DNA of 64,000 nucleotides from Sipunculus nudus (taxonomy: Eukaryota; Annelida; Sipuncula; Golfingiida; Sipunculidae), in assembly GCA_026874595.1 (NCBI GenBank), contig CM049315.1, positions 17,691,664-17,755,663 of the forward strand. Direction: 5' to 3'. Below, one piece after another: positions 1-23,843 of this stretch. How positions within the stretch are numbered: position 1 is the stretch's first letter; every line of letters begins with the position of its first letter. The translations under genes were made by a program, and so were the position numbers. The notes beneath the pieces are model-generated. The model saw nothing but the letters and a program-made list of their open reading frames with translations, was not told the DNA's origin and did not search any database.

Positions 1-2758
1 ACTTTGAAGTTCCCTGAATCTCCCGGTAGTGTGAGCCCCCGACGGGCATACACTGAGGGGCTCCCATCCAGCAATTCCGCAAATTGCCGGCAATTTAGCA
101 ACTTTGTAGTTCCCTGAATGCTCCGGTAGGATGAGCCATGGGGACCATACACTGATTGGCTCCCATCCAGCAATTACGCAAATTGCCGGCAACTTAGCAA
201 ATTTGTAGTTCTCCGAATCATCCGGTAAAGTGAGCCGCATCTGGTCAAACTCAGAGGGGTATCCATCTAGCAAGTATGCGAATTGCTGGCAATTAAGCAA
301 CTTTGTTGTTCCCTGAATCTCCCGGTAGGGCGAGTTCCCGCCGGTCAAACACTGAGGGGCTCCCATCCAGCAATTCCGCAAATTGCTGGCAATCAGACAA
401 CTTTGAAATTCCCTGATTCCTCCGGTAAAAATGAGCCCCATCTGGGCATACACAGAGGGGTCCCCATCAAGCAATTTCGCAAATTGCCAGCAATTCAGCA
501 ACTTTGTAGTTCTCTGAATGCTCAGGTAGGCTGAGTCCCGGGGATCATACACTGAGGGGCTCGCTTCCAGCAATTCCGCAAATTGCCGGCAATTCAACAA
601 CTTGGTAGTTCTCTGAATCTCCCGGTAGGTTGAGCCCCCGCCGGTCAAACACAGAGGGGTCCCCATCTAGCAATTTCGCAAAGTGCTGGCAATTAAGCAA
701 CTTTGTTGTTCCCTGAATCTCCCGGTAGGGTGAGCCCCCACCAGTCAAACAAAGAGGGGTCCCCATCTAGTAATTTTGCAATTTCCGACAATTTAGCAAC
801 TTTGTAGTTCCCTGAATCCTCCGGTAGGGTGAGCTCCTTGGATCATACACTGAGGGGCTCCCATCCAGCCATTCCGCAAATTGCAAGCAATTTAGCAAAT
901 TGTAGTTCACTGAATCCTCTGGTAGAGTGAGCCCCATCTGGTCAAACCCAGAGGGGTCCTCACCTAGCAATTTTGCAAATTGCCGGCAATTTAGCAATTT
1001 TGTAGTTCTCTGAATCCCCCGGTAGGGTGAGCCCCCGACGGTCAAACACAGAAGGGTCCCCATCTAGCAATTTCGCAAATTGCTGGCAATTAAGCAACTT
1101 TGTTGTTCCCTGAATCTCCCGGTAGGGCGAGTCCCCGCCGGTCAAACACTGAGGGGCTCCCATCCAGCAATTCCGCAAATTGCCGGCAATCAGACTACTT
1201 TGAAGTTCCCTGATTCCTCCGGTAAAAATGAGCCCCATCTGGGCATACACAGAGGGGTCCCCATCAAGCAATTTCGCAAATTGCCAGCAATTCAGCAACT
1301 TTGTAGTTCTCTGAATGCTCAGGTAGGCTGAGTCCCGGGGATCATACACTGAGGGGCTCGCTTCCAGCAATTCCGTAAATTGCCGGCAGTTTAACAACTT
1401 GGTAGTTCTCTGAATCTCCCGGTAGGTTGAGCCCCCGCCGGTCAAACACAGAGGGGTCCCCATCTAGCAATTTCGCAAAGTGCTGGCAATTAAGCAACTT
1501 TGTTGTTCCCTGAATCTCCCGGTAGGGCGAGTCCCCGCCGGTCAAACACAGAGGGGTCCCCATGTAGCAATTCCGCAAACTGCCGGCAATTTAGCAACTT
1601 TGTAGTTCTAAGAATCCTCCGTTAGGGTGACCCCCGGGGATCATACACTGACGGGCTCCCTTCCACCAATTTCGCAAATTGCCGGCAATTTCGCAACTTT
1701 ATAGTTCTCTGAATCCCCCTGTAGGGTGAGCCCCGCCGGTCAAACACAGAGGGGCACCCATGTAGCAATTCCGCAAATTGCTGGCAATTTAGCAACTTTG
1801 TAATTCCCTGAATCCTCCGTTAGGGTGAGCCCACTTCGGCTATACACAGAGGGGTCCCCATCTAGCAATTCCGCAAATTGCCGGCAATTTAGCAACTTTG
1901 TAGTTCCCTGAATCCTCCGGTAGGGTGAGCCCCGGGGATCATACACTGATAGGGCTCCCATCAAGCAATTCCGCAAATTGCCGGCAATTTAGCAACTTTG
2001 TTGTTCTCTGAATCCCCGGTAGGGTGAGCCCCCACCAGTCAAACAAAGAGGGGTCCCCATCTAGTAATTTTGCAATTGCCGACAATTTAGCAACTTTGTA
2101 GTTCCCTGAATCCTCCGGTAGGGTGAGCTCCTTGGATCATACACTGAGGGGCTCCCAACCAGCCATTCCGCAAATTGCCGGCAATTTAGCAACTTTTTAG
2201 TTCTCTGAATCCTCGGGTAAAGTGAGCCCCATCTGGTCAAACACAGAGGGATCCCTTCTATCAATTTCGCATATTGCTGGCAATTAAGCAACTTTGTAGT
2301 TCCCTAAATCTCCCGGTAGGGCGAGCCTCGGAAGGTCATACACTGAGGGGCTCCCATCCAGCAATTCCGCAAATTGCCGGCAATTTATCAACTTTTTAGT
2401 TCCTTGAATGCTCAGGTAGGGAGAGTCCCGGGGATCATACACTGAGGGGCTCCCTTCCAGCAATTCCGCTAATTGCCGGCAATTAAACAACTTGGTAGTT
2501 CTCTGAATCTCCCGGTAGGTTAAGCCCCCGCCGGTCAAACACAGAGGGGTCCCCATCTCGCAATTTCGCAAATTGCTGGCAATTAAGCAACTTTGTTGTT
2601 CCCTGAATCTCCCGGTAGGGCGAGTCCCCGCCAGTCAAACACAGAGGGGTCCCCATCTAGCAATTTTGCAAATTGCTGGCAATTAGACAACTTTGAAGTT
2701 CCCTGAATCTCCCGGTAGTGTGAGCCCTCGATGGTCACACACTGAGGGGCTCCCATCC
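1..2758 (+). repeat. Satellite A higher-order block, left copy (offset 5277)
   Basis: This stretch of about 28 monomers matches 5278-8035 almost base for base at a constant offset of 5277 bp. Shared private variants include 'gagccatggggaccatacactgattgg' split over positions 131-157, and 'agcaagtatgcgaattgc' at about 269. The match fades near 2760, where this copy reads 'ccattccgcaaattgcaagc' and the other keeps the standard unit. Such long identical blocks inside an otherwise varied array imply recent duplication by unequal exchange. Confidence 0.85.
283..1876 (+). repeat. Two consecutive 797-bp (8-monomer) repeats in satellite A
   Basis: The marker run 'ctggcaattaagcaactttg' followed by 'ttgttccctgaatctcccgg' occurs at 281 and again at 1078. 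The monomers after it follow in the same order for several units at offset 797. Eight monomers fit 797 bp. The match is strongest in the first six units; after that the two copies take different monomers, so the period is partial. The same pair recurs at 5560 and 6357. Confidence 0.7.
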
Positions 2759-5277
2759 AGCCATTCCGCAAATTGCAAGCAATTTAGCAAATTGTAGTTC
2801 ACTGAATCCTCTGGTAGAGTGAGCCCCATCTGGTCAAACCCAGAGGGGTCCTCACCTAGCAATTTTGCAAATTGCTGGCAATTAAGCAACTTTGAAATTC
2901 CCTGAATCTCCTGGTAGGGCGAGCCCCCGACGGGCATACACTGAGGGGCTCCCATACAGCTATTCCGCAAATTGCCGGCAATTTAGCAACTTTTTAGTTC
3001 TCTGAATCCTCGGGTAAAGTGAGCCCCATCTGGTCAAACACAGAGGGATCCCTTCTATCAATTTCGCATATTGCTTGCAATTAATCAACTTTGTAGTTCC
3101 CTAAATCTCCCGGTAGGGCGAGCCTCGGACGGTCATACACTGAGGGGCTCCCATCCAGCAATTCCGCAAATTGCCGGCAATTTAGCAACTTTGTAGTTCC
3201 TTGAATGCTCAGGTAGGGTGAGTCCCGGGGATCATACACTGAGGGGCTCCCTTCCAGCAATTCCGCTAATTGCCGGCAATTAAACAACTTGGTACTTCTC
3301 TGAATCTCCCGGTAGGTTAAGCCCCCGCCGGTCAAACACAGAGGGGTCCGCATCTCGCAATTTCGCAAATTGTTGGCAATTAAGCAACTTTGTTGTTCCC
3401 TGAATCTCCTGGTAGGGCGAGTCCCCGCCAGTCAAACACAGAGGGGTCCCCATCTAGCAATTTTGCAAATTGCTGGCAATTAGACAACTTTGAAGTTCCC
3501 TGAATCTCCCGGTACTGTGAGCCCTCGATGGTCACACACTGAGGGGCTCCCATCCAGGAATCCCGCAAATTGCCGGCAATTTAGCAATTTTGTAGTTCTC
3601 TGAATCCCCCGGTAGGGTGAGCCCCCGACGGTCAAACACAGAGGGGTCCCCATCTAGCAATTTCGCAAATTGCTGGCAATTAAGCAACTTTGTTGTTCCC
3701 TGAATCTCCCGGTAGGGCGAGTCCCCGCCGGTCAAACACTGAGGGGCTCCCATCCAGCAATTCCGCAAATTGCCGGCAATCAGACTACTTTGAAGTTCCC
3801 TGATTCCTCCGGTAAAAATGAGCCCCATCTGGGCATACACAGAGGGGTCCCCATCAAGCAATTTCGCAAATTGCCAGCAATTCAGCAACTTTGTAGTTCT
3901 CTGAATGCTCAGGTAGGCTGAGTCCCGGGGATCATACACTGAGGGGCTCGCTTCCAGCAATTCCGCAAATTGCCGGCAATTTAACAACTTGGTAGTTCTC
4001 TGAATCTCCCGGTAGGTTGAGCCCCGCCGGTCAAACACAGAGGGGTCCCCATCTAGCAATTTCGCAAAGTGCTGGCAATTAAGCAACTTTGTAGTTCCCT
4101 GAATCTCCCGGTAGGGCGAGTCCCCGCCGGTCAAACACAGAGGGGTCCCCATGTAGCAATTCCGCAAACTGCCGGCAATTTAGCAACTTTGTAGTTCTAA
4201 GAATCCTCTGTTAGGGTGACCCCCGGGGATCATACACTGACGGGCTCCCTTCCACCAATTTCGCAAATTGCCGGCAATTTCGCAACTTTATAGTTCCCTG
4301 AATCCTTCGGTAGGGTGAGCCCCGGGGATCATACACTGATAGGGCTCCCATCAAGCAATTCCGCAAATTGCCGGCAATTTAGCAACTTTGTTGTTCTCTG
4401 AATCCCCGGTAGGGTGAGCCCCCACCAGTCAAACAAAGAGGGGTCCCCATCTAGTAATTTTGCAATTGCCGACAATTTAGCAACTTTGTAGTTCGCTGAA
4501 TCCTCCGGTGGGGTGAGCTCCTTGGATCATACACTTAGGGGCTCCCATCCAGCCATTCCGCAAATTGCAAGCAATTTAGCAAATTGTAGTTCACTGAATC
4601 CTCTGGTAGAGTGAGCCCCATCTGGTCAAACCCAGAGGGGTCCTCACCTAGCAATTTGGAAATTGCTGGCAATTAAGCAACTTTGAAATTCCCTGAATCT
4701 CCTGGTAGGGCGAGCCCCCGACGGGCATACACTGAGGGGCTCCCATCCAGCAATTCCGCAAATTGCCGGCAATTTAGCAACTTTTTAGTTCTCTGAATCC
4801 TCGGGTAAAGTGAGCCCCATCTGGTCAAACACAGAGGGATCCCTTCTATCAATTTCGCATATTGCTGGCAATTAAGCAACTTTGTAGTTCCCTAAATCTC
4901 CCGGTAGGGCGAGCCTCGGACGGTCATACACTGAGGGGCTCCCATCCAGCAATTCCGCAAATTGCCGGCAATTTATCAACTTTTTAGTTCCTTGAATGCT
5001 CAGGTAGGGAGAGTCCCGGGGATCATACACTGAGGGGCTCCCTTCCAGCAATTCCGCTAATTGCCGGCAATTAAACAACTTGGTAGTTCTCTGAATCTCC
5101 CGGTAGGTTAAGCCCCCGCCGGTCAAACACAGAGGGGTCCCCATCTCGCAATTTCGCAAATTGCTGGCAATTAAGCAACTTTGTTGTTCCCTGAATCTCC
5201 CGGTAGGGCGAGTCCCCGCCAGTCAAACACAGAGGGGTCCCCATCTAGCAATTTTGCAAATTGCTGGCAATTGGACA

Positions 5278-8035
5278 ACTTTGAAGTTCCCTGAATCTCC
5301 CGGTAGTGTGAGCCCTCGATGGTCACACACTGAGGGGCTCCCATCCAGCAATTCCGCAAATTGCCGGCAATTTAGCAACTTTGTAGTTCCCTGAATGCTC
5401 CGGTAGGATGAGCCATGGGGACCATACACTGATTGGCTCCCATCCAGCAATTACGCAAATTGCCGGCAACTTAGCAAATTTGTAGTTCTCCGAATCATCC
5501 GGTAAAGTGAGCCGCATCTGGTCAAACTCAGAGGGGTATCCATCTAGCAAGTATGCGAATTGCTGGCAATTAAGCAACTTTGTTGTTCCCTGAATCTCCC
5601 GGTAGGGCGAGTTCCCGCCGGTCAAACACTGAGGGGCTCCCATCCAGCAATTCCGCAAATTGCTGGCAATCAGACAACTTTGAAATTCCCTGATTCCTCC
5701 GGTAAAAATGAGCCCCATCTGGGCATACACAGAGGGGTCCCCATCAAGCAATTTCGCAAATTGCCAGCAATTCAGCAACTTTGTAGTTCTCTGAATGCTC
5801 AGGTAGGCTGAGTCCCGGGGATCATACACTGAGGGGCTCGCTTCCAGCAATTCCGCAAATTGCCGGCAATTCAACAACTTGGTAGTTCTCTGAATCTCCC
5901 GGTAGGTTGAGCCCCCGCCGGTCAAACACAGAGGGGTCCCCATCTAGCAATTTCGCAAAGTGCTGGCAATTAAGCAACTTTGTTGTTCCCTGAATCTCCC
6001 GGTAGGGTGAGCCCCCACCAGTCAAACAAAGAGGGGTCCCCATCTAGTAATTTTGCAATTTCCGACAATTTAGCAACTTTGTAGTTCCCTGAATCCTCCG
6101 GTAGGGTGAGCTCCTTGGATCATACACTGAGGGGCTCCCATCCAGCCATTCCGCAAATTGCAAGCAATTTAGCAAATTGTAGTTCACTGAATCCTCTGGT
6201 AGAGTGAGCCCCATCTGGTCAAACCCAGAGGGGTCCTCACCTAGCAATTTTGCAAATTGCCGGCAATTTAGCAATTTTGTAGTTCTCTGAATCCCCCGGT
6301 AGGGTGAGCCCCCGACGGTCAAACACAGAAGGGTCCCCATCTAGCAATTTCGCAAATTGCTGGCAATTAAGCAACTTTGTTGTTCCCTGAATCTCCCGGT
6401 AGGGCGAGTCCCCGCCGGTCAAACACTGAGGGGCTCCCATCCAGCAATTCCGCAAATTGCCGGCAATCAGACTACTTTGAAGTTCCCTGATTCCTCCGGT
6501 AAAAATGGGCCCCATCTGGGCATACACAGAGGGGTCCCCATCAAGCAATTTCGCAAATTGCCAGCAATTCAGCAACTTTGTAGTTCTCTGAATGCTCAGG
6601 TAGGCTGAGTCCCGGGGATCATACACTGAGGGGCTCGCTTCCAGCAATTCCGCAAATTGCCGGCAGTTTAACAACTTGGTAGTTCTCTGAATCTCCCGGT
6701 AGGTTGAGCCCCCGCCGGTCAAACACAGAGGGGTCCCCATCTAGCAATTTCGCAAAGTGCTGGCAATTAAGCAACTTTGTTGTTCTCTGAATCTCCCGGT
6801 AGGGCGAGTCCCCGCCGGTCAAACACAGAGGGGTCCCCATGTAGCAATTCCGCAAACTGCCGGCAATTTAGCAACTTTGTAGTTCTAAGAATCCTCCGTT
6901 AGGGTGACCCCCGGGGATCATACACTGACGGGCTCCCTTCCACCAATTTCGCAAATTGCCGGCAATTTCGCAACTTTATAGTTCTCTGAATCCCCCTGTA
7001 GGGTGAGCCCCGCCGGTCAAACACAGAGGGGCACCCATGTAGCAATTCCGCAAATTGCTGGCAATTTAGCAACTTTGTAATTCCCTGAATCCTCCGTTAG
7101 GGTGAGCCCACTTCGGCTATACACAGAGGGGTCCCCATCTAGCAATTCCGCAAATTGCCGGCAATTTAGCAACTTTGTAGTTCCCTGAATCCTCCGGTAG
7201 GGTGAGCCCCGGGGATCATACACTGATAGGGCTCCCATCAAGCAATTCCGCAAATTGCCGGCAATTTAGCAACTTTGTTGTTCTCTGAATCCCCGGTAGG
7301 GTGAGCCCCCACCAGTCAAACAAAGAGGGGTCCCCATCTAGTAATTTTGCAATTGCCGACAATTTAGCAACTTTGTAGTTCCCTGAATCCTCCGGTAGGG
7401 TGAGCTCCTTGGATCATACACTGAGGGGCTCCCAACCAGCCATTCCGCAAATTGCCGGCAATTTAGCAACTTTTTAGTTCTCTGAATCCTCGGGTAAAGT
7501 GAGCCCCATCTGGTCAAACACAGAGGGATCCCTTCTATCAATTTCGCATATTGCTGGCAATTAAGCAACTTTGTAGTTCCCTAAATCTCCCGGTAGGGCG
7601 AGCCTCGGACGGTCATACACTGAGGGGCTCCCATCCAGCAATTCCGCAAATTGCCGGCAATTTAGCAACTTTGTAGTTCCTTGAATGCTCAGGAAGGATG
7701 AGTCCCGGGGATCATACTCTGAGGGGCTCCCTTCCAGCAATTCCGCTAATTGCCGGCAATTAAACAACTTGGTAGTTCTCTGAATCTCCCGGTAGGTTAA
7801 GCCCCCGCCGGTCAAACACAGAGGGGTCCCCATCTTGCAATTTCGCAAATTGCTGGCAATTAAGCAACTTTGTTGTTCCCTGAATCTCCCGGTAGGGCGA
7901 GTCCCCGCCAGTCAAACACAGAGGGGTCCCCATCTAGCAATTTTGCAAATTGCTGGCAATTAGACAACTTTGAAGTTCCCTGAATCTCCCGGTAGTGTGA
8001 GCCCTCGATGGTCACACACTGAGGGGCTCCCATCC
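5278..8035 (+). repeat. Satellite A higher-order block, right copy (offset 5277)
   Basis: This is the second copy of the block at 1-2758. Small differences include 'tttatcaactttttag' in the left copy against 'tttagcaactttgtag' here near 7665, and 'aaaaatggg' here (6503) against 'aaaaatgag'. The block carries two 797-bp sub-repeats, starting near 5560 and 6357, as the left copy does at 283 and 1080. Confidence 0.85.
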
Positions 8036-8347
8036 AGCAATTCCGCAAATTGCCGGCAAGTTAGCAACTTTGTAGTTCCCTGAATGCTCCGGTAGGATGA
8101 GCCCCGGGGACCATACACTGAGGGGTCCCCATCAAGCAATTTCGCAAATTGCCAGCAATTCAGCAACTTTGTAGTTCTCTGAATGCTCAGGTAGGCTGAG
8201 TCCCGGGGATCATACACTGTGGGGCTCGCTTCCAGCAATTCCGCAAATTGCCGGCAATTTAACAACTTGGTAGTTCTCTGAATCATCCGGTAAAGTGAGC
8301 CGCATCTGGTCAAACTCAGAGGGGTATCCATCTAGCAAGTATGCGAA

Positions 8348-9330
8348 TTGCTGGCAATTAAGCAACTTTGTTGTTCCCTGAATCTCCCGGTAGGGCGAGT
8401 TCCCGCCGGTCAAACACTGAGGGGCTCCCATCCAGCAATTCCGCAAATTGCTGGCAATCAGACAACTTTGAAGTTCCTAGATTCCTCCGGTAAAAATGAG
8501 CCCCATCTGGGCATACACAGAGGGGTCCCCATCAAGCAATTTCGCAAATTGCCAGCAATTCAGCAACTTTGTAGTTCTCTGAATGCTCAGGTAGGCTGAG
8601 TCCCGGGGATCATACACTGTGGGGCTCGCTTCCAGCAATTCCGCAAATTGCCGGCAATTTAACAACTTGGTAGTTCTCTGAATCTCCCGGTAGGTTGAGC
8701 CCCCGCCGGTCAAACACAGAGGGGTCCCCATCTAGCAATTTCGCAAAGTGCTGGCAATTAAGCAACTTTGTTGTTCCCTGAATCTCCCGGTAGGGTGAGC
8801 CCCCACCAGTCAAACAAAGAGGGATCCCCATCTTGTAATTTTGCAATTGCCGACAATTTAGCAACTTTGTAGTTCCCTGAATCCTCCGGTAGGGTGAGCT
8901 CCTTGGATTATACACTGAGGGGCTCCCATCCAGCCATTCCGCAGGCAATTAAGCAACTTTGTTGTTGCCTGAATCTCCCGGTAGGGTGAGCCCCCACCAG
9001 TCAAACAAAGAGGGGTCCCCATCTAGTAATTTTGCAATTGCCGACAATTTAGCAACTTTGTAGTTCCCTGTATCCTCCGGTAGGGTGAGCTCCTTGGATC
9101 ATACACTGAGGGGCTCCCATCCAGCCATTCCGCAAATTGCAAGCAATTTAGCAAATTGTAGTTCACTGAATCCTCTGGTAGAGTGAGCCCCATCTGGTCA
9201 AACCCAGAGGGGTCCTCACCTAGCAATTTTGCAAATTGCTGGCAATTTAGCAATTTTGTAGTTCTCTGAATCCCCCGGTAGGGTGAGCCCCCGACGGTCA
9301 AACACAGAAGGGTCCCCATCTAGCAATTTC
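8348..9330 (+). repeat. Satellite A block repeated at offset 2879
   Basis: This block of about ten monomers is repeated at 11227-12209. It shares the change 'agttcctagattcc' (8472 and 11351) and the short monomer junction 'ccattccgcaggcaatt' (8935 and 11814). Both markers are rare elsewhere in the array, so the two blocks share a recent ancestor. Confidence 0.75.
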
Positions 9331-11901
9331 GCAAATTGCTGGCAATTAAGCAACTTTGTTGTTCCCTGAATCTCCCGGTAGGGCGAGTCCCCGCCGGTCA
9401 AACACTGAGGGCTCCCATCCAGCAATTCCGCAAATTGCCGGCAATCAGACTACTTTGAAGTTCCCTGATTCCTCCGGTAAAAATGAGCCCCATCTGGGCA
9501 TACACAGAGGGGTCCCCATCAAGCAATTTCGCAAATTGCCAGCAATTCAACAACTTTGTAGTTCTCTGAATGCTCAGGTAGGCTGAGTCCCGGGGATCAT
9601 ACACTGAGGGGCTCGCTTCCAGCAATTCCTCAAATTGCCGGCAATATAACAACTTGGTAGTTCTCTGAATCTCCCGGTAGGTTGAGCCCCCGCCGGTCAA
9701 ACACAGAGGGGTCCCCATCTAGCAATTTCGCAAAGTGCTGGCAATTAAGCAACTTTGTTGTTCCCTGAATCTCCCGGTAGGGCGAGTCCCCGCCGGTCAA
9801 ACACAGAGGTGTCCCCATGTAGCAATTCCGCAAACTGCCGGCAATTTAGCAACTTTGTAGTTCTAAGAATCCTCCGTTAGGGTGACCCCCGGGGATCATA
9901 CACTGACGGGCTCCCTTCCACCAATTTCGCAAATTGCCGGCAATTTCGCAACTTTATAGTTCTCTGAATCCCCCTGTAGGGTGAGCCCCGCCGGTCAAAC
10001 ACAGAGGAGCACCCATGTAGCAATTCCGCAAATTGCTGGCAATTTAGCAACTTTGTAATTCCCTGAATCCTCCGTTAGGGTGAGCCCACTTCGGCTATAC
10101 ACAGAGGGGTCCCCATCTAGCAATTCCGCAAATTGCCGGCAATTTAGCAACTTTGTAGTTCCCTGAATCCTCCGGTAGGGTGAGCCCCGGGGATCATACA
10201 CTGATAGGGCTCCCATCAAGCAATTCCGCAAATTGCCGGCAATTTAGCAACTTTGTTGTTCTCTGAATCCCCGGTAGGGTGAGCCCCCACCAGTCAAACA
10301 AAGAGGGGTCCCCATCTAGTAATTTTGCAATTGCCGACAATTTAGCAACTTTGTAGTTCCCTGAATCCTCCGGTAGGGTGAGCTCCTTGGATCATACACT
10401 GAGGGGCTCCCATCCAGCAATTCCGCAAACTGCAAGCAATTTAGCAAATTGTAGTTCACTGAATCCTCTGGTAGAGTGAGCCCCATCTGGTCAAACCCAG
10501 AGGGGTCCTCACCTAGCAATTTTGCAAATTGCTGGCAATTAAGCAACTTTGAAATTCCCTGAATCTCCTGGTAGGGCGAGCCCCCGACGGGCATACACTG
10601 AGGGGCTCCCATACAGCAATTCCGCAAATTGCCGGCAATTTAGCAACTTTTTAGTTCCTTGAATGCTCAGGTAGGATGAGTCCCGGGGATCATACACTGA
10701 GGGGCTCCCTTCCAGCAATTCCGCTAATTGCCGGCAATTAAACAACTTGGTAGTTCTCTGAATCTCCCGGTAGGTTAAGCCCCCGCCGGTCAAACACAGA
10801 GGGGTCCCCATCTCGCAATTTCGCAAATTGCTGGCAATTAAGCAACTTTGTTGTTCCCTGAATCTCCCGGTAGGGCGAGTCCCCGCCAGTCAAACACAGA
10901 GGGGTCCCCATCTAGCAATTTTGCAAATTGCTGGCAATTAGACAACTTTGAAGTTCCCTGAATCTCCCGGTAGTGTGAGCCCTCGATGGTCACACACTGA
11001 GGGGCTCCCATCCAGCAATTCCGCAAATTGCCGGCAAGTTAGCAACTTTGTAGTTCCCTGAATGCTCCGGTAGGATGAGCCCCGGGGACCATACACTGAG
11101 GGGCTCCCATCCAGCAATTACGCAAATTGCCGGCAACTTAGCAAATTTGTAGTTCTCCGAATCATCCGGTAAAGTGAGCCGCATCTGGTCAAACTCAGAG
11201 GGGTATCCATCTAGCAAGTATGCGAATTGCTGGCAATTAAGCAACTTTGTTGTTCCCTGAATCTCCCGGTAGGGCGAGTTCCCGCCGGTCAAACACTGAG
11301 GGGCTCCCATCCAGCAATTCCGCAAATTGCCGGCAATCAGACAACTTTGAAGTTCCTAGATTCCTCCGGTAAAAATGAGCCCCATCTGGGCATACACAGA
11401 GGTGTCCCCATCAAGCAATTTCGCAAATTGCCAGCAATTCAGCAACTTTGTAGTTCTCTGAATGCTCAGGTAGGCTGAGTCCCGGGGATCATACACTGAG
11501 GGGCTCGCTTCCAGCAATTCCGCAAATTGCCGGCAATTTAACAACTTGGTAGTTCTCTGAATCTCCCGGTAGGTTGAGCCCCCGCCGGTCAAACACAGAG
11601 GGGTCCCCATCTAGCAATTTCGCAAAGTTCTGGCAATTAAGCAACTTTGTTGTTGCCTGAATCTCCCGGTAGGGTGAGCCCCCACCAGTCAAACAAAGAG
11701 GGGTCCCCATCTAGTAATTTTGCAATTGCCGACAATTTAGCAACTTTGTAGTTCCCTGAATCCTCCGGTAGGGTGAGCTCCTTGGATCATACACTGAGGG
11801 GCTCCCATCCAGCCATTCCGCAGGCAATTAAGCAACTTTGTTGTTGCCTGAATCTCCCGGTAGGGTTAGCCCCCACCAGTCAAACAAAGAGGGGTCCCCA
11901 T

Positions 11902-14900
11902 CTAGTAATTTTGCAATTGCCGACAATTTAGCAACTTTGTAGTTCCCTGAATCCTCCGGTAGGGTGAGCTCCTTGGATCATACACTGAGGGGCTCCCATC
12001 CAGCCATTCCGCAAATTGCAAGCAATTTAGCAAATTGTAGTTCACTGAATCCTCTGGTAGAGTGAGCCCCATCTGGTCAAACCCAGAGGGGTCCTCACCT
12101 AGCAATTTTGCAAATTGCTGGCAATTAAGCAACTTTGAAATTCCCTGAATCTCCTGGTAGGGCGAGCCCCCGACGGGCATACACTGAGGGGCTCCCATAC
12201 AGCAATTCCGCAAATTGCCGGCAATTTAGCAACTTTTTAGTTCTCTGAATCCTCTGGTAAAGTGAGCCCCATCTGGTCAAACACAGAGGGATCCCTTCTA
12301 TCAATTTCGCATATTGCTTGCAATTAATCAACTTTGTAGTTCCCTAAATCTCCCGGTAGGGCGAGCCTCGGACGGTCATACACTGAGGGGCTCCCATCCA
12401 GCAATTCCGCAAATTGCCGGCAATTTAGCAACTTTGTAGTTCCTTGAATGCTCAGGTAGGGTGAGTCCCGGGGATCATACACTGAGGGGCTCCCTTCCAG
12501 CAATTCCGCTAATTGCCGGCAATTAAACAACTTGGTAGTTCTCTGAATCTCCCGGTAGGTTAAGCCCCCGCCGGTCAAACACAGAGGGGTCCGCATCTCG
12601 CAATTTCGCAAATTGCTGGCAATTAAGCAACTTTGTTGTTCCCTGAATCTCCCGGTAGGGCGAGTCCCCGCCAGTCAAACACAGAGGGGTCCCCATCTAG
12701 CAATTTTGCAAATTGCTGGCAATTAGACAACTTTGAAGTTCCCTGAATCTCCCGGTAGTGTGAGCCCTCGATGGTCACACACTGAGGGGCTCCCATCCAG
12801 CAATTCCGCAAATTGCCGGCAAGTTAGCAACTTTGTAGTTCCCTGAATGCTCCGGTAGGATGAGCCATGGGGACCATACACTGAGGGGCTCCCATCCAGC
12901 AATTACGCAAATTGCCGGCAACTTAGCAAATTTGTAGTTCTCCGAATCATCCGGTAAAGTGAGCCGCATCTGGTCAAACTCAGAGGGGTATCCATCTAGC
13001 AAGTATGCGAATTGCTGGCAATTAAGCAACTTTGTTGTTCCCTGAATCTCCCGGTAGGGCGAGTTCCCGCCGGTCAAACACTGAGGGGCTCCCATCCAGC
13101 AATTCCGCAAATTGCTGGCAATCAGACAACTTTGAAGTTCCCTGATTCCTCCGGTAAAAATGAGCCCCATCTGGGCATACACAGAGGGGTCCCCATCAAG
13201 CAATTTCGCGAATTGCCAGCAATTCAGCAACTTTGTAGTTCTCTGAATGCTCAGGTAGGCTGAGTCCCGGGGATCATACACTGAGGGGCTCGCTTCCAGC
13301 AATTCCGCAAATTGCCGGCAATTTAACAACTTGGTAGTTCTCTGAATCTCCCGGTAGGTTGAGCCCCCGCCGGTCAAACACAGAGGGGTCCCCATCTAGC
13401 AATTTCGCAAAGTGCTGGCAATTAAGCAACTTTGTTGTTCCCTGAATCTCCCGGTAGGGTGAGCCCCCACCAGTCAAACAAAGAGGGGTCCCCATCTAGT
13501 AATTTTGCAATTGCCGACAATTTAGCAACTTTGTAGTTCCCTGAATCCTCCGGTAGGGTGAGCTCCTTGGATCATACACTGAGGGGCTCCCATCCAGCCA
13601 TTCCGCAAATTGCAAGCAATTTAGCAAATTGTAGTTCACTGAATCCTCTGGTAGAGTGAGCCCCATCTGGTCAAACCCAGAGGGGTCCTCACCTAGCAAT
13701 TTTGCAAATTGCTGGCAATTAAGCAACTTTGAAATTCCCTGAATCTCCTGGTAGGGCGAGCCCCCGACGGGCATACACTGAGGGGCTCCCATACAGCAAT
13801 TCCGCAAATTGCCGGCAATTTAGCAACTTTTTAGTTCTCTGAATCCTCGGGTAAAGTGAGCCCCATCTGGTCAAACACAGAGGGATCCCTTCTATCAATT
13901 TCGCATATTGCTTGCAATTAATCAACTTTGTAGTTCCCTAAATCTCCCGGTAGGGCGAGCCTCGGACGGTCATACACTGAGGGGCTCCCATCCAGCAATT
14001 CCGCAAATTGCCGGCAATTTAGCAACTTTGTAGTTCCTTGAATGCTCAGGTAGGGTGAGTCCCGGGGATCACACACTGAGGGGCTCCCTTCCAGCAATTC
14101 CGCTAATTGCCGGCAATTAAACAACTTGGTAGTTCTCTGAATCTCCCGGTAGGTTAAGCCCCCGCCGGTCAAACACAGAGGGGTCCGCATCTCGCAATTT
14201 CGCAAATTGCTGGCAATTAAGCAACTTTGTTGTTCCCTGAATCTCCCGGTAGGGCGAGTCCCCGCCAGTCAAACACAGAGGGGTCCCCATCTAGCAATTT
14301 TGCAAATTGCTGGCAATTAGACAACTTTGAAGTTCCCTGAATCTCCCGGTAGTGTGAGCCCTCGATGGTCACACACTGAGGGGCTCCCATCCAGCAATTC
14401 CGCAAATTGCCGGCAAGTTAGCAACTTTGTAGTTCCCTGAATGCTCCGGTAGGATGAGCCATGGGGACCATACACTGAGGGGCTCCCATCCAGCAATTAC
14501 GCAAATTGCCGGCAACTTAGCAAATTTGTAGTTCTCCGAATCATCCGGTAAAGTGAGCCGCATCTGGTCAAACTCAGAGGGGTATCCATCTAGCAAGTAT
14601 GCGAATTGCTGGCAATTAAGCAACTTTGTTGTTCCCTGAATCTCCCGGTAGGGCGAGTTCCCGCCGGTCAAACACTGAGGGGCTCCCATCCAGCAATTCC
14701 GCAAATTGCTGGCAATCAGACAACTTTGAAGTTCCCTGATTCCTCCGGTAAAAATGAGCCCCATCTGGGCATACACAGAGGGGTCCCCATCAAGCAATTT
14801 CGCGAATTGCCAGCAATTCAGCAACTTTGTAGTTCTCTGAATGCTCAGGTAGGCTGAGTCCCGGGGATCATACACTGAGGGGCTCGCTTCCAGCAATTCC

Positions 14901-15089
14901 GCAAATTGCCGGCAATTTAACAACTTGGTAGTTCTCTGAATCTCCCGGTAGGTTGAGCCCCCGCCGGTCAAACACAGAGGGGTCCCCATCTAGCAATTTC
15001 GCAAAGTTCTGGCAATTAAGCAACTTTGTTGTTGCCTGAATCTCCCGGTAGGGTGAGCCCCCACCAGTCAAACAAAGAGGGGTCCCCAT
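11902..15089 (+). repeat. Two consecutive 1594-bp (16-monomer) higher-order repeats
   Basis: Positions 11902-13495 and 13496-15089 match at an offset of 1594 bp, which is twice 797. They are nearly identical over the whole length, including variant units such as 'cacacactgaggggctccc' and 'gcatattgcttgcaattaatc'. Differences are few, for example 'cctctggtaaag' at 12252 against 'cctcgggtaaag' at 13846, and 'atcatacac' against 'atcacacac' near 14069. This is the cleanest higher-order unit in the array. Confidence 0.85.
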
Positions 15090-17699
15090 CTAGTAATTTT
15101 GCAATTGCCGACAATTTAGCAACTTTGTAGTTCCCTGAATCCTCCGGTAGGGTGAGCTCCTTGGATCATACACTGAGGGGCTCCCATCCAGCCATTCCGC
15201 AGGCAATTAAGCAACTTTGTTGTTGCCTGAATCTCCCGGTAGGGTTAGCCCCCACCAGTCAAACAAAGAGGGGTCCCCATCTAGTAATTTTGCAATTGCC
15301 GACAATTTAGCAACTTTGTAGTTCCCTGAATCCTCCGGTAGGGTGAGCTCCTTGGATCATACACTGAGGGGCTCCCATCCAGCCATTCCGCAGGCAATTA
15401 AGCAACTTTGTTGTTGCCTGAATCTCCCGGTAGGGTTAGCCCCCACCAGTCAAACACAGAGGGGTCCGCATCTCGCAATTTCGCAAATTGCTGGCAATTA
15501 AGCAACTTTGTTGTTCCCTGAATCTCCCGGTAGGTTGAGCCCCCGCCGGTCAAACACAGAGGGGTCCCCATCTAGCAATTTCGCAAAGTTCTGGCAATTA
15601 AGCAACTTTGTTGTTCCCTGAATCTCCCGGTAGTGTGAGCCCTCGATGGTCACACACAGAGGGGTCCCCATCTAGCAATTTTGCAAATTGCTGGCAATTA
15701 GACAACTTTGAAGTTCCCTGAATCTCCCGGTACTGTGAGCCCTCGATGGTCACACACTGAGGGGCTCCCATCCAGGAATCCCGCAAATTGCCGGCAATTT
15801 AGCAATTTTGTAGTTCTCTGAATCCCCCGGTAGGGTGAGCCCCCGACGGTCAAACACAGAGGGGTCCCCATCTAGCAATTTCGCAAATTGCTGGCAATTA
15901 AGCAACTTTGTTGTTCCCTGAATCTCCCGGTAGGGCGAGTCCCCGCCGGTCAAACACTGAGGGGCTCCCATCCAGCAATTCCGCAAATTGCCGGCAATCA
16001 GACTACTTTGAAGTTCCCTGATTCCTCCGGTAAAAATGAGCCCCATCTGGGCATACACAGAGGGGTCCCCATCAAGCAATTTCGCAAATTGCCAGCAATT
16101 CAGCAACTTTGTAGTTCTCTGAATGCTCAGGTAGGCTGAGTCCCGGGGATCATACACTGAGGGGCTCGCTTCCAGCAATTCCGCAAATTGCCGGCAATTT
16201 AACAACTTGGTAGTTCTCTGAATCTCCCGGTAGGTTGAGCCCCCGCCGGTCAAACACAGAGGGGTCCCCATCTAGCAATTTCGCAAAGTGCTGGCAATTA
16301 AGCAACTTTGTTGTTCCCTGAATCTCCCGGTAGGGCGAGTCCCCGCCGGTCAAACACAGAGGGGTCCCCATGTAGCAATTCCGCAAACTGCCGGCAATTT
16401 AGCAACTTTGTAGTTCTAAGAATCCTCCGTTAGGGTGACCCCCGGGGATCATACACTGACGGGCTCCCTTCCATCAATTTCGCAAATTGCCGGCAATTTC
16501 GCAACTTTATAGTTCTCTGAATCCCCCTGTAGGGTGAGCCCCGCCGGTCAAACACAGAGGGGCACCCATGTAGCAATTCCGCAAATTGCTGGCAATTTAG
16601 CAACTTTGTAATTCCCTGAATCCTCCGTTAGGGTGAGCCCACTTCGGCTATACACAGAGGGGTCCCCATCTAGCAATTCCGCAAATTGCCGGCAATTCAG
16701 CAACTTTGTAGTTCCCTGAATCCTCAGGTAGGGTGAGCCCCGGGGATCATACACTGATAGGGCTCCCATCAAGCAATTCCGCAAATTGCCGGCAATTTAG
16801 CAACTTTGTTGTTCTCTGAATCCCCGGTAGGGTGAGCCCCCACCAGTCAAACAAAGAGGGGTCCCCATCTAGTAATTTTGCAATTTCCGACAATTTAGCA
16901 ACTTTGTAGTTCCCTGAATTCTCCGGTGGGGTGAGCTCCTTGGATCATACACTGAGGGGCTCCCATCCAGCCATTCCGCAAATTGCAAGCAATTTAGCAA
17001 ATTGTAGTTCACTGAATCCTCTGGTAGAGTGAGCTCCATCTGGTCAAACCCAGAGGGGTCCTCACCTAGCAATTTTGTAAATTGCTGGCAATTAAGCAAC
17101 TTTGAAATTCCCTGAATCTCCTGGTAGGGCGAGCCCCCGACGGGCATACACTGAGGGGCTCCCATACAGCAATTCCGCAAATTGCCGGCAATTTAGCAAC
17201 TTTTTAGTTCTCTGAATCCTCGGGTAAAGTGAGCCCCATCTGGTCAAACACAGAGGGATCCCTTCTATCAATTCCGCAAATTGCCGGCAATTTAGCAACT
17301 TTGTAGTTCCTTGAATGCTCAGGTAGGGTGAGTCCCGGGGATCATTCACTGAGGGGCTCCCTTCCAGCAATTCCGCTAATTGCCGGCAATTAAACAACTT
17401 GGTAGTTCTCTGAATCTCCCGGTAGGTTAAGCCCCCGCCGGTCAAACACAGAGGGGTCCCCATCTCGCAATTTCGCAAATTGCTGGCAATTAAGCAACTT
17501 TGTTGTTCCCTGAATCTCCCGGTAGGGCGAGTCCCCGCCAGTCAAACACAGAGGGGTCCCCATCTAGCAATTTTGCAAATTGCTGGCAATTAGACAACTT
17601 TGAAGTTCCCTGAATCTCCCGGTAGTGTGAGCCCTCGATGGTCACACACTGAGGGGCTCCCATCCAGCAATTCCGCAAATTGCCGGCAAGTTAGCAACT

Positions 17700-20600
17700 T
17701 TGTAGTTCCCTGAATGCTCAGGTAGGGTGAGCCCCGGGGATCATACACCGAGGGGCTCCCATCCAGCAATGTCGCAAATTGCCGGAAATTTAGCAACTTG
17801 GTAGTTCTCTGAATCCCCATGTAGGGTGAGCCCCGCCGGTCAAACACAAAAGGGTCCCCATCTAGCAATTTTGGAAATTGCCTGCAATTTAGGATTTTTG
17901 TAGTTCTCTGATTCCTCCGGTAGAATGAGCCCCATCTGGTCAAACCCAGAGGGGTCCCCTTCTAGCAATTTCGCAAATTGCTGACAATTAAGCAAATTTG
18001 TAGTTCCCTGAATCTTCCGGTAGGGCGAGTCCACGCCGGTCAAACAGAGAGGGGTCCCCATGTAGCTATTCCGCAAATTGCCGGCAAATTAGCAACTTTG
18101 TAGTCCTTAGAATCCTCCGTTAGGGTGAGCCCACTACGGTTAAGCACAGATGGGTCCCCATCTAGCAATTTTGCAAATTGCCGGCAATTTAGCAAGTTTG
18201 TAGTTCTTAGAATCCTCCGTTAGGGTGAGCCTACTACGCTTATTCACAGAGGGGTCCCCATCTAGCAATTCCGCAAATTGCCGGCAATTCAGCATCTTTG
18301 TAGTTCCCTGAATCCTCCGGTAGGCTGAGCTCCGGGGATCATACAGAAAAGGGCTCCCGCAAATTGCCGGCAATTTAGCAACTTTGTAGTTCTCTAAATC
18401 CCCCGGTAGGTTGATCCCCCGCCTGTCAAACACAGAAGGGTCCGCGTCACGCAATTGTGGAAATAGCCGGCAATTTAGCAACTTTGTAGTTCCCTGAATG
18501 CTCCGGTAGTGTCAACCCCGGGGATCATACACTGAGGGGCTCCCATCCAGCAATTCCGCAAATTGCTGGCAATTTAGCAACTTAGTAGTTCTCTGAATCC
18601 CCCGGTAGGGTGAGCCCCCGCCGGTCAAATACAAAAGGGTCCCCATCTAGCAATCTTGCAAATTGCCTGCAACTAGCATTTTTGTAGTTCCCTGAATGCT
18701 CAGGTAGGGTGAGCCCCGGGGATCATACACTGAGGGCTCCCATCCAGCAATTTCGCAAATTGCCGGCAATTTAGCAACTTGGTAGTTCTCTGAATCCCCC
18801 TGTAGGGTGAGCCCCGCCGGCCAAACACAGAGGGGCACCAATGTAGCAATTCCGCAAATTGCCGGCAATTTAGCAACCTTTTAGTTCTCTGAATCCTCGG
18901 GTAAAGTGAGCCCCATCTGGTCAAACACAGAGGGATCCCTTCTATCAATTTCGCATATTGCTTGCAATTAAGCAACTTTGTAGTTCCCTAAATCTCCCGG
19001 TAGGGAGAGCCTCGGACGGTCATACACTGAGGGGCTCCCATCCAGCAATTCCGCAAATTGCCGGCAATTTAGCAACTTTGTAGTTCCTTGAATGCTCAGG
19101 TAGGGTGAGTCCCGGGGATCATACACTGAGGGGCTCCCTTCCAGCAATTCCGCTAATTGCCGGCAATTAAACAACTTGGTACTTCTCTGAATCTCCCGGT
19201 AGGTTAAGCCCCCGCCGGTCAAACACAGAGGGGTCCGCATCTCGCAATTTCGCAAATTGCTGGCAATTAAGCAACTTTGTTGTTCCCTGAATCTCCCGGT
19301 AGGGCGAGTCCCCGCCAGTCAAACACAGAGGGGTCCCCATCTAGCAATTTTGCAAATTGCTGGCAATTAGACAACTTTGAAGTTCCCTGAATCTCCCGGT
19401 AGTGTGAGCCCTCGATGGTCACACACTGAGGGGCTCCCATCCAGCAATTCCGCAAATTGCCGGCAAGTTAGCAACTTTGTAGTTCCCTGAATGCTCCGGT
19501 AGGATGAGCCATGGGGACCATACACTGAGGGGCTCCCATCCAGCAATTACGCAAATTGCCGGCAACTTAGCAAATTTGTAGTTCTCCGAATCATCCGGTA
19601 AAGTGAGCCGCATCTGGTCAAACTCAGAGGGGTATCCACCTAGCAAGTATGCGAATTGCTGGCAATTAAGCAACTTTGTTGTTCCCTGAATCTCCCGGTA
19701 GGTTAAGCCCCCGCCGGTCAAACACAGAGGGGTCCCCATCTCGCAATTTCGCAAATTGCTGGCAATAAGCAACTTTGTTGTTCCCTGAATCTCCCGGTAG
19801 GGCGAGTCCCCGCCAGTCAAACACAGAGGGGTCCCCTTCTAGCAATTTTGCAAATTGCTGGCAATTAGACAACTTTGAAGTTCCCTGAATCTCCCGGTAG
19901 TGTAAGCCCTCGATGGTCACACTCTGAGGGGCTCCCATCCAGCAATTCCGCAAATTGCCGGCAAGTTAGCAACTTTGTAGTTCCCTGAAGGCTCCGGTAG
20001 GATGAGCCCCGGGGACCATACACTGAGGGGCTCCCATCCAGCAATTACGCAAATTGCCGGCAACTTAGCAAATTTGTAGTTCTCCGAATCATCCGGTAAA
20101 GTGAGCCGCATCTGGTCAAACTCAGAGGGGTATCCATCTAGCAAGTATGCGAATTGCTGGCAATTAAGCAACTTTGTAGTTCCCTGAATCTCCCGGTAGG
20201 GCGAGTCCCCGCCGGTCAAACACAGAGGGTCCCCATATAGCAATTTTGCAAATTGCTGGCAATTTAACAACTTTGAAGTTCCCTGAATCTCCCGGTAGGG
20301 TTAGCCCTCGACGGTCATACACTGAGTGGCTCCCATCCAGCAATTCCGCAAATTGCAAGCAATTTAGCAACTTGTAGTTCTCTGAATCCTCCGGTAGAGT
20401 TAGCCCCATCTGGTCAAACCCAGAGGGGTCCTCACCTAGCAATTTTGCAAATTGCTGGCAATTAAGCAACTTTGAAGTTCCCTGAATCTCCTGGTAGGGC
20501 GAGCCCCGGCGGGCATACACTGAGGGGCTCCTATTCAGCAATTCCGCAAATTGCCGGCAATTTAGCAACTGTGTAGTTCCCTGAATGCTCCGGTAGGGTG

Positions 20601-23343
20601 CGCCCCGGGGACTATACACTGAGGGGCTCCCATCCAGGAATTCCGCAAATTGCCGGCAATTTAGCAATTTTGTAGTTCTCTGAATCCCCCGGTAGGGTGA
20701 GCCCCCGACGGTCAAACACAGAGGGGTCCCCATCTAGCAATTTCGCAAATTGCTGGCAATTAAGCAACTTTGTTGTTCCCTGAATCTCCCGGTAGGGCCA
20801 GTCCCCGCCGGTCAAACACTGAGGGGCTCCCATCCAGCAATTCCGCAAATTGCCGGCAATCAGACAACTTTGAAGTTCCCTGATTCCTCCGGTAAAAATG
20901 AGCCCCATCTGGGCATACACAGAGGGGTCCCCATCAAGCAATTTCGCAAAGTGCCAGCAATTCAGCAACTTTGTAGTTCTCTGAATGCTCAGGTAGGCTG
21001 AGTCCGGGGGATCATACACTGAGGGGCTCGCTTCCAGCAATTCCGCTAATTGCCGGCAATTTAACAACTTGGTAGTTCTCTGAATCTCCCGGTAGGTTGA
21101 GCCCCCGCCGGTCAAACACAGAGGGGTCCCCATCTAGCAATTTCGCAAAGTGCTGGCAATTAAGCAACTTTGTTGTTCCCTGAATCTCCCGGTAGGGCGA
21201 GTCCCCGCCGGTCAAACACAGAGGGGTCCCCATGTAGCAATTCCGCAAACTGCCGGCAATTTAGCAACTTTGTATTTCTTAGAATCCTCCGTTAGGGTGA
21301 CCCCCGGGGATCATACACTGACGGGCTCCCTTCCACCAATTTCGCAAATTGCCGGCAATTTCGCAACTTTATAGTTCTCTGAATCCCCCTGTAGGGTGAG
21401 CCCCGCCCGTCAAACACAGAGGGGTACCCATGTAGCAATTCCGCAAATTGCTGGCAATTTAGCAACTTTGTAATTCCCTGAATCTTCCGTTAGGGTGAGC
21501 CCACTACGGCTATACACAGAGGGGTCCCCATCTAGCAATTCCGCACACTGCCGGCAATTTAGCAACTTTGTATTTCCCTGAATACTCCGGTAGGGTGAGC
21601 CCCGGGGATCATACACCGAGGGGGCTACATCTAGCAATTCCGCAAATTGCCGGCAATTAAGCAACTTTGTAGTTCTCTGAATCCTCCGGTAGAGTACGCC
21701 CCATCTGGTCAAACACAAAGGGGTCCCCATCTAGCAATTTTGCAAATAGCCGGCAATTTAGCAACTTTGTATTTCCCTGAATCCTCCGGTAGGCTGAGCT
21801 CCGGGGATCATACAGAGAGGGGCTCCCATCCAGCAATTCCGCAAATTGCCGGCAATTTAGCAACTTTGTAGTTCTCTGAATCCCCCGGTAGGTTGATCCC
21901 CCGCCTGTCAAACACAGAAGGGTCCGCATCAAGCAATTGTGGAAATATCCGGCAATTTAGCAACTTTGTCGTTCCCTGAATGCTCCGGTAGTGTGAACCC
22001 CGGGGATCATACACTGAGGGGCTCCCATCCAGCAATTCCGCAAATTGCCGGCAATTTAGCAACTTTGTAGTTTTCTGAATGCTCCGGTAGGTTAAGCCCC
22101 CGCCGGTCAAACACAGAGGGGTCCCCATCCAGTTATTTTGCAAATTGCCTGCAATTTAGCAACTTTGTAGTTCCCTGAATGCTCCGGTAGGGTGAGCCCC
22201 CGACGATTATACACTGAGGTGCTCCAATCCAGCAATTCCGCAAATTGCCGGCAATTTCGCAACTTAGTAGTTCTCTGAATCTCCCGGTAGGGTGAGCCCT
22301 CGACGGTCATACACTGTGGGGCTCCAATCCAGCAATTCCGCAAATTTCCGGCAATTTAGCAACTTTGTAGTTCCCTGAATGCTCCGGTAGGGTAAGCCCC
22401 GGGGATCATACACTGAGGGGTTGCCATCCAGCAATTCCGCAAATTGCCGACAATTAAGCAACTTAGTAGTTCTCTGAATCCCCCGGTAGGGTGAGCCCCC
22501 GCCGGTCAAACACAGAGGGGTCCCCATCTAGCAATTTTCCATTGCCTGCAATTTAGCAACTTTGTAGTTCCCTGAATGCTCAGGTAGGGTGAGCCCCGGG
22601 GATCCTACACTGAGGGGCTCCCATCCAGCAATTCCGCAAATTGCCGGCAATTTAGCAACTTTGTAGTTCTCTGAATCCTCCGGTAAAAATGAGCCCCATC
22701 TGGGCAAACACCGAGGGGTCCCCATCAAGCAATTTCGCAAATTGCCAGAATTTAGCAACTTTGTAGTTCTCTGAATGCTCAGGTAGGGTGAGCTCCTGAC
22801 GGTCATACACTGAGGAGCCCCCATCTAGAAATTCCGCAAATTGCCGGCAATTAAGCAACTTTGTAGTTCTCTGAATCCTCCGGTAGAGTACGCCCCAGGC
22901 GGTCATACACTGAGGAGCCCCCATCTAGCAATTCCGCAAATTGCCAGCAATTTAGCAACTTTGTAGTTCTCTGATTGCTGCGGTAGGGTGAGCCTCGGGG
23001 ATTATACACCGAGGGGGCTACATCTAGCAATTCCGCAAATTGCCGGCAATTAAGCAACTTTGTAGATCTCTGAATCCTCCGGTAGAGTACGCCCCGGGCG
23101 GTCATACACAGAGGTGTCCCCATCTTGCTATTCCGCAAAATGCCAGCAATTTAGTAACTTTGCAGATCTCTGAATGCTCTGATAGGGTGAGCCCCGGGGA
23201 TCATACACTATGGGGGCTACATCTAGCAATTCCGCAAATTGCCAGCAATTTAACAACTTTGTAGTTTTCTGAATGTGCCGGTAGGGTGAGCCCCCGGCGG
23301 TCATATACAGAGGGGTCCCCATCTTGCAATTTCACAAATTGCA
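17700..23343 (+). repeat. Diverged right flank of satellite A
   Basis: Monomers here carry more private substitutions than those to the left, for example 'aattttggaaattgcctgc' (17869), 'ggaaatatccggc' (21941), 'gtagatctctgaatgctctg' (23161) and 'tcacaaattgcag' at the last unit. Apart from one HOR-like island at about 18960-21250, the higher-order order is lost. The last recognisable unit ends near 23343, where the sequence turns abruptly AT-rich. Older, unhomogenised monomers at an array edge are the usual pattern for satellites. Confidence 0.75.
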
Positions 23344-23602
23344 GTGTCCCCTGGTGGGCAAAGTTATGCAGCATACAATACAGTTTCCACGAGGTCATGC
23401 ATGACAACATAACTAACTTTTAAGTGAACAGACTATGAACAGTGCACACAAAGTTACAAATTTAGTGATATCACGTATACAATCCAACGTAGTAAATTAT
23501 CTACATTTTTTTTATAGTTTGCAGTATTACACGTTAATTTGCAAACCACAATACAATTTGATATTATATTGACCTTAAATGGTTAGAGTACACTCTATTA
23601 CA
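23344..23602. other. Array border, AT-rich, no gene seen
   Basis: This short stretch lies between the last satellite A monomer and the MITE. It is AT-rich with an imperfect T-run at 23506-23515. I see no coding signal or repeat family in it. Confidence 0.6.
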
Positions 23603-23843
23603 CCACAGGCGCTTTAATTGCTATTAGTGTAGATTTCGGTTGAATTTGTTTATTTTTTGGGTCATTTCATTATAATTATTACTAATCTGACATTTTCCTA
23701 GCGTTTTTTTTTCGCATCCCTTTATTATTACTTTATATTTGAGATAGGCAGGCAAGATGCCCCCGTTGTTTAACCGAAATTTAAACAAAATTTCTCAAAT
23801 TTAACCGAAATCTGTACACTAATAGCAATTCAAGCGCCTGTGG
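23603..23843. mobile_element. 241-bp MITE-like element with long terminal inverted repeats
   Basis: The left end (23603-23648) reads 'ccacaggcgctttaattgct', then 'attagtgtagatttcggttg'. The right end (about 23796-23843) is its reverse complement with few mismatches: 'aaccgaaatctgtacactaa', then 'tagcaattcaagcgcctgtg'. The arms are about 46 bp with one 2-base indel, around an AT-rich centre of about 145 bp with no coding capacity. This structure is typical of a miniature inverted-repeat transposable element. The target duplication is unclear; a TA lies close outside both ends. The family is not recognised. Confidence 0.75.

What the first reader, a model, noticed from the sequence alone, without database searches (positions are those of the whole stretch)
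1..23343. Satellite A: a large satellite with a monomer of about 99.6 bp, of no family I recognise
The array has about 234 head-to-tail copies and runs off the left edge of the window, so its true size is unknown. The two monomer types (A: gatcatacactg; B: ggtcaaacacag) and hybrid units point to exchange between types. I do not recognise the unit from any known family.
Basis: seen in the sequence. Interest (0 to 1): 0.75.

Follow-up and report, generated by a model that had tools for sequence, protein, structure and literature searches.

The report
Satellite arms of a giant transposon
The long run of 99-letter repeats in this window is not a free-standing satellite but one greatly swollen arm of a jumping-gene family whose ends are built of satellite repeats and which is probably moved by a Zisupton-type (KDZ) enzyme, which shows how a mobile element can seed large satellite blocks.

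Summary
Confirmed: window 1-23343 is a head-to-tail array of about 235 units of 99-100 bp. It starts 32.2 kb left of the window (55.6 kb, about 558 units if gap-free; about 20 kb of that was not read). The interpretation changes. The unit recurs inverted at 26710-27232, and array, core, a 77-bp array and inverted array form one composite found at three other places. Of 26 array clusters taken from the listed search rows (24 places), 26 have an element end within 25 kb; the window's own copy has neither end. Elements end GAGGGAGG.../...CCTATATG with imperfect inverted ends; a target-site duplication of 7-9 bp shows at 5 of 10 paired family-1 elements (0 of 90 mismatched pairs), and a perfect 8-bp one at 3 of 3 relatives read in a sister family. 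Sister families share ends but carry other satellites. Of 8 KDZ transposase loci found in 1.43 Gb, three lie inside such elements, one with both ends and a perfect duplication. So: the subterminal arm of a foldback-like, probably KDZ-mobilised giant transposon, here an end-less relic with a runaway arm. Closest known: Tetris of Drosophila virilis; Zisupton/KDZ giants. New variant of a known kind. Not shown: transposition in action, transposase binding, species.

The parts
1..23343 (+). Left arm: 99-100-bp satellite array, about 235 units in the window; continues left to C10:17659456, where it starts abruptly without the family's left tail. Consensus units contain the dyad AAATTGCCGGCAATTT.
23344..25103 (+). 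Core of the element, 91.5-92.6% identical to the C7 and C14 copies over its aligned parts; about 1.1 kb of their core is missing here
25104..26354 (+). Internal 77-bp satellite array (16 units here; 63-90 in the three other copies)
26355..26709 (+). Spacer with AT microsatellite, 85-90% identical to the other copies
26710..27232 (-). Right arm: the same 99-bp satellite in inverted orientation, 5 units (11-12 in the three other copies)
27255..28695 (.). Unrelated abundant repeat abutting the right arm, where the family's right tail is missing; its right boundary is approximate. A relative of this repeat on C16 is the target of one insertion; the uninterrupted site here is at 27447.

Best explanation
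The array is the left subterminal arm of a foldback-like DNA transposon. A typical member runs: left tail (about 165 bp, starting GAGGGAGGTGGGG), 99-bp array (+), core with a 77-bp array, 99-bp array (-), right tail (about 190 bp, ending CCCCACCTATATG). Members insert with an 8-bp target-site duplication, as cut-and-paste elements do. A KDZ/Zisupton-type transposase encoded by a few large members most likely moves them, the non-coding members in trans. Most monomers repeat an inverted-repeat core that is also in the right tail; I infer it to be a contact for the transposase or a host factor. Arm length changes by block duplication. In this copy the left arm grew to about 558 units and both ends are missing, leaving a satellite-like relic. 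Shown by sequence: anatomy, ends, duplications, dispersal, KDZ exons inside three elements. Inferred: that KDZ does the moving, movement in trans, the role of the dyad, and that growth followed insertion.
For: Shared array-core-array composite at four places. Sharp ends: 39 of 40 scored right-tail matches end within 4 bases of one point and 19 of the 25 strongest left-tail matches start within 4 bases of one point. The 20-base end motif has 209 exact matches, 0 when read backwards. 26 of 26 array clusters (24 places) near an end. Duplications of 7-9 bp at 5 of 10 pairs against 0 of 90 controls, and an empty-site relative; three perfect 8-bp duplications in family 3. KDZ exons in three elements. 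Block duplications in the array. Zisupton is reported to give 8-bp duplications (passage of PMC12730594).
Against: The window copy has neither tail, so its own insertion cannot be proven. 5 of 10 paired family-1 elements show no duplication, nor do the two KDZ-bearing family-1 elements on C12 and C17. Homology of those two over their full 67-72 kb is not shown: 4 of 5 sampled C12 windows matched none of 11 C17 samples. Five of eight KDZ loci were not tied to ends. KDZ scores are modest (32 bits, cut-off 26.6). Right-left association had no randomised control, only an arithmetic expectation of about 0.2% per cluster.
Confidence: 0.82

Rival explanations
1. Same transposon reading, but moved by another transposase (for example hAT, which also makes 8-bp duplications), with the KDZ genes only passengers.
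For: 8-bp duplications are also usual for hAT (stated in PMC12730594, passage). hAT dimerisation domains are abundant here, 667 candidates. KDZ exons were tied to only three elements.
Against: By reading the list, none of the 150 scored hAT matches lies in a paired element, whereas 3 of 8 KDZ loci do, in the same antisense orientation, one with both ends and a perfect duplication. 517 hAT candidates were not scored.
Confidence: 0.12
2. An ordinary satellite (for example pericentromeric) from which pieces were captured by a transposon, so the link with element ends is secondary.
For: The window copy lacks both ends; a very long array; capture of tandem repeats by elements is described (passages of PMC12628747).
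Against: 26 of 26 examined clusters carry an end; arms are inverted and lie at fixed positions; the tails themselves contain degenerate unit sequence; sister families have their own satellites in the same position.
Confidence: 0.08
3. The great length of this array is an assembly artefact (false expansion).
For: Blocks of up to 27 units recur at 99.4% identity; no reads are held.
Against: Mean unit identity is only 80%, and arms of tens of units occur elsewhere (54 on C7, 51 on C2).
Confidence: 0.07
4. Helitron/Helentron-borne central repeats, as in the Pacific oyster.
For: Satellite-like arrays carried by non-autonomous elements, each with its own combination of flanks and repeats (abstract and passages of PMC7492417).
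Against: Those elements lack target-site duplications (same paper); here there are 8-bp duplications and inverted arms.
Confidence: 0.02

Closest known systems
Tetris, foldback transposon of Drosophila virilis (PMC4079207; abstract and passages read)
   Same: Non-autonomous element with tandem repeats inside long inverted ends; outer flanking domain; variable unit number; 8-10-bp duplications; repeats amplified into satellite-like arrays
   Different: Unit about 220 bp, arrays up to 66 copies, transposase not found there. Here the unit is about 99 bp, one arm reaches about 558 units, an extra internal 77-bp array is present, sister families have other satellites, and a candidate transposase (KDZ) is inside some members
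Zisupton / KDZ giant transposons (passages of PMC12730594, PMC12477816, PMC9297572; the founding Zisupton paper is not held)
   Same: KDZ transposase domain; 8-bp duplications (Zisupton); large size, up to 30.3 kb in Ectocarpus and 31.7 kb in Chlamydomonas; movement in trans suggested
   Different: Satellite arms were not mentioned in the passages I saw. Here a 26.3-kb KDZ element is proven by its ends; two spans of 67-72 kb are not fully verified
Oyster Cg_HINE Helentron elements (PMC7492417; abstract and passages)
   Same: Satellite-like arrays dispersed by non-autonomous elements; different repeats in otherwise similar frames
   Different: Central, mostly short arrays; no target-site duplications; other transposition class
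Galileo of Drosophila (only as described in PMC4079207)
   Same: Foldback-like; tandem repeats in the inverted ends hold additional transposase binding sites
   Different: P superfamily (THAP) transposase; a binding role of the repeats here is inference

Membership tests
Zisupton / KDZ transposon (the element families) | KDZ transposase domain inside elements bounded by the shared ends | tested here: met
   3 elements: C12:7129432-7155773 (both ends, duplication), C17:52827242-52899182 and C12:49126109-49192708 (both tails); Pfam PF18758 over its cut-off
Zisupton / KDZ transposon (the element families) | 8-bp target-site duplication (Zisupton) | tested here: met
   Perfect 8 bp in 3 of 3 family-3 elements read; 7-9 bp in 5 of 10 family-1 pairs, 0 of 90 controls; none seen at the two KDZ-bearing family-1 elements
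Zisupton / KDZ transposon (the element families) | Terminal inverted repeats | tested here: met
   Imperfect, about 20 bp; motif AGGYGGGGARCYGTYGGTTT at both ends, 209 matches, 0 control
Zisupton / KDZ transposon (the element families) | Complete multi-exon transposase gene | not tested
   Only one exon read in each of three elements; no transcript data
Zisupton / KDZ transposon (the window copy itself) | Own ends, duplication and transposase | tested here: not met
   No left or right tail at the array start or in 23300-64000 apart from matches to unit-like parts; a 1.8-kb core without a KDZ match. It is a relic, filed as such
Foldback-like element | Long inverted arms made of tandem repeats around a middle part | tested here: met
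   Four places with (+) array, core, (-) array; also the C2 and C12 long copies
hAT transposon | hAT transposase inside the elements | tested here: inconclusive
   0 of 150 listed matches in paired elements by reading; 667 candidates, 517 unscored
Helitron / Helentron | No target-site duplication | tested here: not met
   Duplications present
Centromeric satellite | CENP-A association, chromosomal block | not testable with these tools
   No ChIP or cytology; listed matches lie on 13 contigs, besides C10 and C17

The most novel reading that the evidence does not exclude
This genome holds a superfamily of giant KDZ transposons whose ends are made of satellite DNA. The families keep the same outer ends but replace the satellite, while an inverted-repeat core (about GCAAATtGCnnGCaATTTGC) stays in the monomers because it is the binding site of the transposase or a partner protein. 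The satellite arms would then be a functional, fast-evolving binding platform, and runaway arms such as this 55-kb one a continuing source of new genomic satellites.
Probability: 0.4. Interest if true: 0.75.

Novelty: new variant of a known kind. Interest (0 to 1): 0.6.

Why it matters
Where new satellites come from is a long-standing question. Here possible stages of birth sit in one genome: elements with 3 to 54 units in the left arm, KDZ-bearing relatives, sister families with other satellites in the same place, and an end-less relic with about 558 units. With ends, target-site duplications and a candidate transposase in hand, the link between transposon arms and satellite growth becomes directly testable.

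Tried and rejected
A free-standing or centromeric satellite was set aside once the inverted second arm and the shared flanks appeared. My first reading that the C14 array begins directly at host DNA was wrong: its left tail was recognised later. hAT was my first guess for the mover, from the duplication length; it fell back when the listed hAT domains lay outside the paired elements and KDZ inside. Helitron was dropped because of the duplications. ORFs in the long family-1 copies on C2 and C12 are short; eight typed ones, seven from C2 and one from the window core, had no Pfam match. The 1-kb stretch L010:4700-5700 proved to be part of a widespread repeat (918 candidates) carried along. An even-length palindrome test did not find the family-2 dyad (10 bp, reached by 221 of 300 shuffles); a test allowing a one-base spacer did. 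The 77-bp unit has no dyad above chance (212 of 300). Rfam (gathering thresholds) and tRNA scans of the window found nothing. The organism was not identified; I ran no species test. Paper searches for Zisupton or KDZ with satellites or tandem repeats and for satellites in inverted-end elements listed no satellite-armed KDZ element in the titles and abstract starts shown; some searches listed only part of their hits (20 of 40, 15 of 239, 15 of 25), and the founding Zisupton paper is not held.
Full report
OBSERVATION. The window is G000:C10:17691664-17755663 in a 1.43-Gb assembly of 153 contigs. TRF gives one array at 1-23342 of about 235 units of 100 bp; an HMM built from the units finds 235 up to 23343. 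The array continues left to C10:17659456: 55.6 kb, about 558 units if gap-free; about 20 kb of it was not read. Units average 79.7% pairwise identity over 233 units. Types A and B exist as described (62 and 103 of 233; 68 other); A is followed by B in 57 of 61 cases. Blocks recur inside the array: the longest run is 27 units at offset 53, 99.4% identical. So part of its growth was by block duplication.

SURROUNDINGS. Five more units lie inverted at 26710-27232. Between the arms is a core with a second satellite of 77 bp at 25104-26354. The flank of the array is repeated elsewhere: 23330-23830 matches three other places at 91-92% over most of its length. Fetched and oriented, all four places show the same order: 99-bp array (+), core, 77-bp array, spacer, 99-bp array (-). 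The left arm holds 54 (C7), 37 (C14) and 3 (second C7 place) units in the others; the right arm 11-12. Those three cores are 97.4-99.8% identical to one another over the aligned parts; the window core is 91.5-92.6% identical to them.

ENDS. Beyond the right arm the three other copies share about 190 bp and then diverge after ...CGGTTCCCCACCTATATG. As a query this tail has 79 candidates; of the 40 scored, 39 end at query base 202-206 and one at 197. Longer copies on C2 and C12 showed a left tail of about 165 bp starting GAGGGAGGTGGGGAGCTGTCGG. Of its 25 strongest matches 19 start at query base 13-17; one of the rest is the query itself. The ends are imperfect inverted repeats. The 20-base end motif has 209 exact matches and none when read backwards; a longer left-end pattern has 127 and none. 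Of 26 array clusters taken from the listed rows (24 distinct places; 30 of 92 candidates scored), 26 have a tail within 25 kb, against about 0.2% expected per cluster by simple arithmetic; no randomisation was run. The window's own array is not among those rows and has no tail. Of the 25 strongest left tails, 16 have a same-strand right tail within 100 kb, at spans from 1.5 to 72 kb.

TRANSPOSITION. For ten paired family-1 elements I compared the bases outside the two ends. A prefix of at least 7 bases of the right flank lies next to the left end in 5 of 10, and in 0 of 90 mismatched pairs (longest control match 6): GAAAATCAG, GAAAATAG, AGGAAATG, AGGACTAT, CACAAAA. The other five show none, nor do the two KDZ-bearing family-1 elements. 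In two cases (C2, C12a) a short inverted copy of the duplication stands before the left end (read). The C16 insertion sits in a relative of the repeat at window 27255-28695, and the window supplies an uninterrupted relative of the site at 27447 (81% over 100 bp with the flanks joined). Seven long copies, query included, are 99-100% identical over 1 kb; the five whose ends were both read have different flanks, so movement was probably recent.

SISTER FAMILIES. Weaker left-tail matches led to a second family with the same terminal part (80% over 84 bp in both loci read) beside a different satellite of about 100-139 bp. The end motif led to a third family with satellites mostly of 118-139 bp at its ends. 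The three family-3 elements read have perfect 8-bp duplications: CGATTTGT (C2, 29.2 kb), TGCACTTG (C7, 6.6 kb) and CGTTGTGG (C12, 26.3 kb). The monomers differ, but each has an inverted-repeat core: AAATTGCCGGCAATTT in family 1 (8 of 300 shuffles reach that length), GCAAATAGC-A-GCTATTTGC in family 2 (0 of 1000), CGCAAATTGCTAGCAATTTGCG in family 3 (0 of 300); the right tail has CAAATTGCTAGCAATTTG (no control). In family 1 this core overlaps the best-conserved 16 bases of the unit (92.7%), but the next region is nearly as conserved (91.6%), so that alone is weak.

THE LIKELY MOVER. KDZ (PF18758), the transposase domain of Kyakuja-Dileera-Zisupton elements, has 9 matches among 12 candidates, at 8 loci. 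Two fall inside the two longest family-1 spans (C12:49126109-49192708, C17:52827242-52899182); for 8 loci and 138.6 kb of 1.43 Gb that has a chance of about 3 in 10 million, though the pairing was noticed after the fact. A third falls in the family-3 element C12:7129432-7155773, which has both ends and a perfect duplication. In all three the exon lies antisense to the left-to-right direction. Pfam supports all three at about 32 bits (cut-off 26.6); families 1 and 3 are 85% identical over 187 residues. The C12 and C17 copies are 97-98% identical for about 8 kb around the exon. Of 11 further C17 samples two matched one of five C12 windows (at positions suggesting a duplication of about 6 kb in C17) and nine matched none, so homology over the full 67-72 kb is not shown. 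The other five KDZ loci were not tied to ends; the list of ends stopped on C15. hAT domains are abundant (667 candidates, 150 listed), none of the listed ones in a paired element by reading. [quoted passage not shown]

THE WINDOW COPY. It has both arms, most of the core (about 1.1 kb missing) and the 77-bp array, but neither tail; its right arm ends against another repeat. I read it as a relic whose left arm expanded from a few dozen to about 558 units. Whether growth came before or after loss of the ends is unknown. This matches the path proposed for Tetris (PMC4079207, abstract and passages), on a larger scale and with a candidate transposase, which was missing there.

LIMITS. Searches of G000 score only the best candidates, so counts are lower bounds. 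No reads, expression data or repeat libraries were available. Binding, cutting and any effect of arm length are inference.

Noticed in passing
window 25104-26354; also L002/L003, L004-L008, L009, L010, L013: The internal 77-bp satellite carries a telomere-like stretch (TTACCCTAACCC) in each unit; it is present in every family-1 long copy read, but was not detected in the C17 KDZ region or its samples.
   Followed up: partly
window 23602-23844: A short inverted-repeat element inside the core, with many relatives genome-wide (1222 candidates for a query covering it), looks like a nested MITE.
   Followed up: no
window 29904-31982: Two copies of a 1,040-bp segment in tandem, 99.8% identical.
   Followed up: no
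window 57006-57859: Two copies of a 430-bp segment in tandem, 99% matches, starting in a run of C.
   Followed up: no
window 45959-46291: A 30-bp minisatellite with 10.9 copies, 93% matches.
   Followed up: no
L015 and L021 (left ends of the C2 and C12a elements): Short inverted copies of the target duplication stand between it and the left end (for example GACTATGCATAGTC), as if left by hairpin repair at that end.
   Followed up: partly
G000:C8:30782902-30794953: Five copies of the 20-base end motif on one strand within 12 kb, a cluster of element ends.
   Followed up: no
G000:C10:17423028-17430500: A separate family-1 array with a left tail starts 236 kb left of the window's array; satellite is still present at 17430001 and absent at 17445001.
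   Followed up: no
L066:1047-2352 and L059:3395-4789: A 1.4-kb stretch next to the array of the C17 KDZ element is 82% identical to the interior of a family-3 element, inverted; either shared element sequence or a common nested repeat.
   Followed up: no
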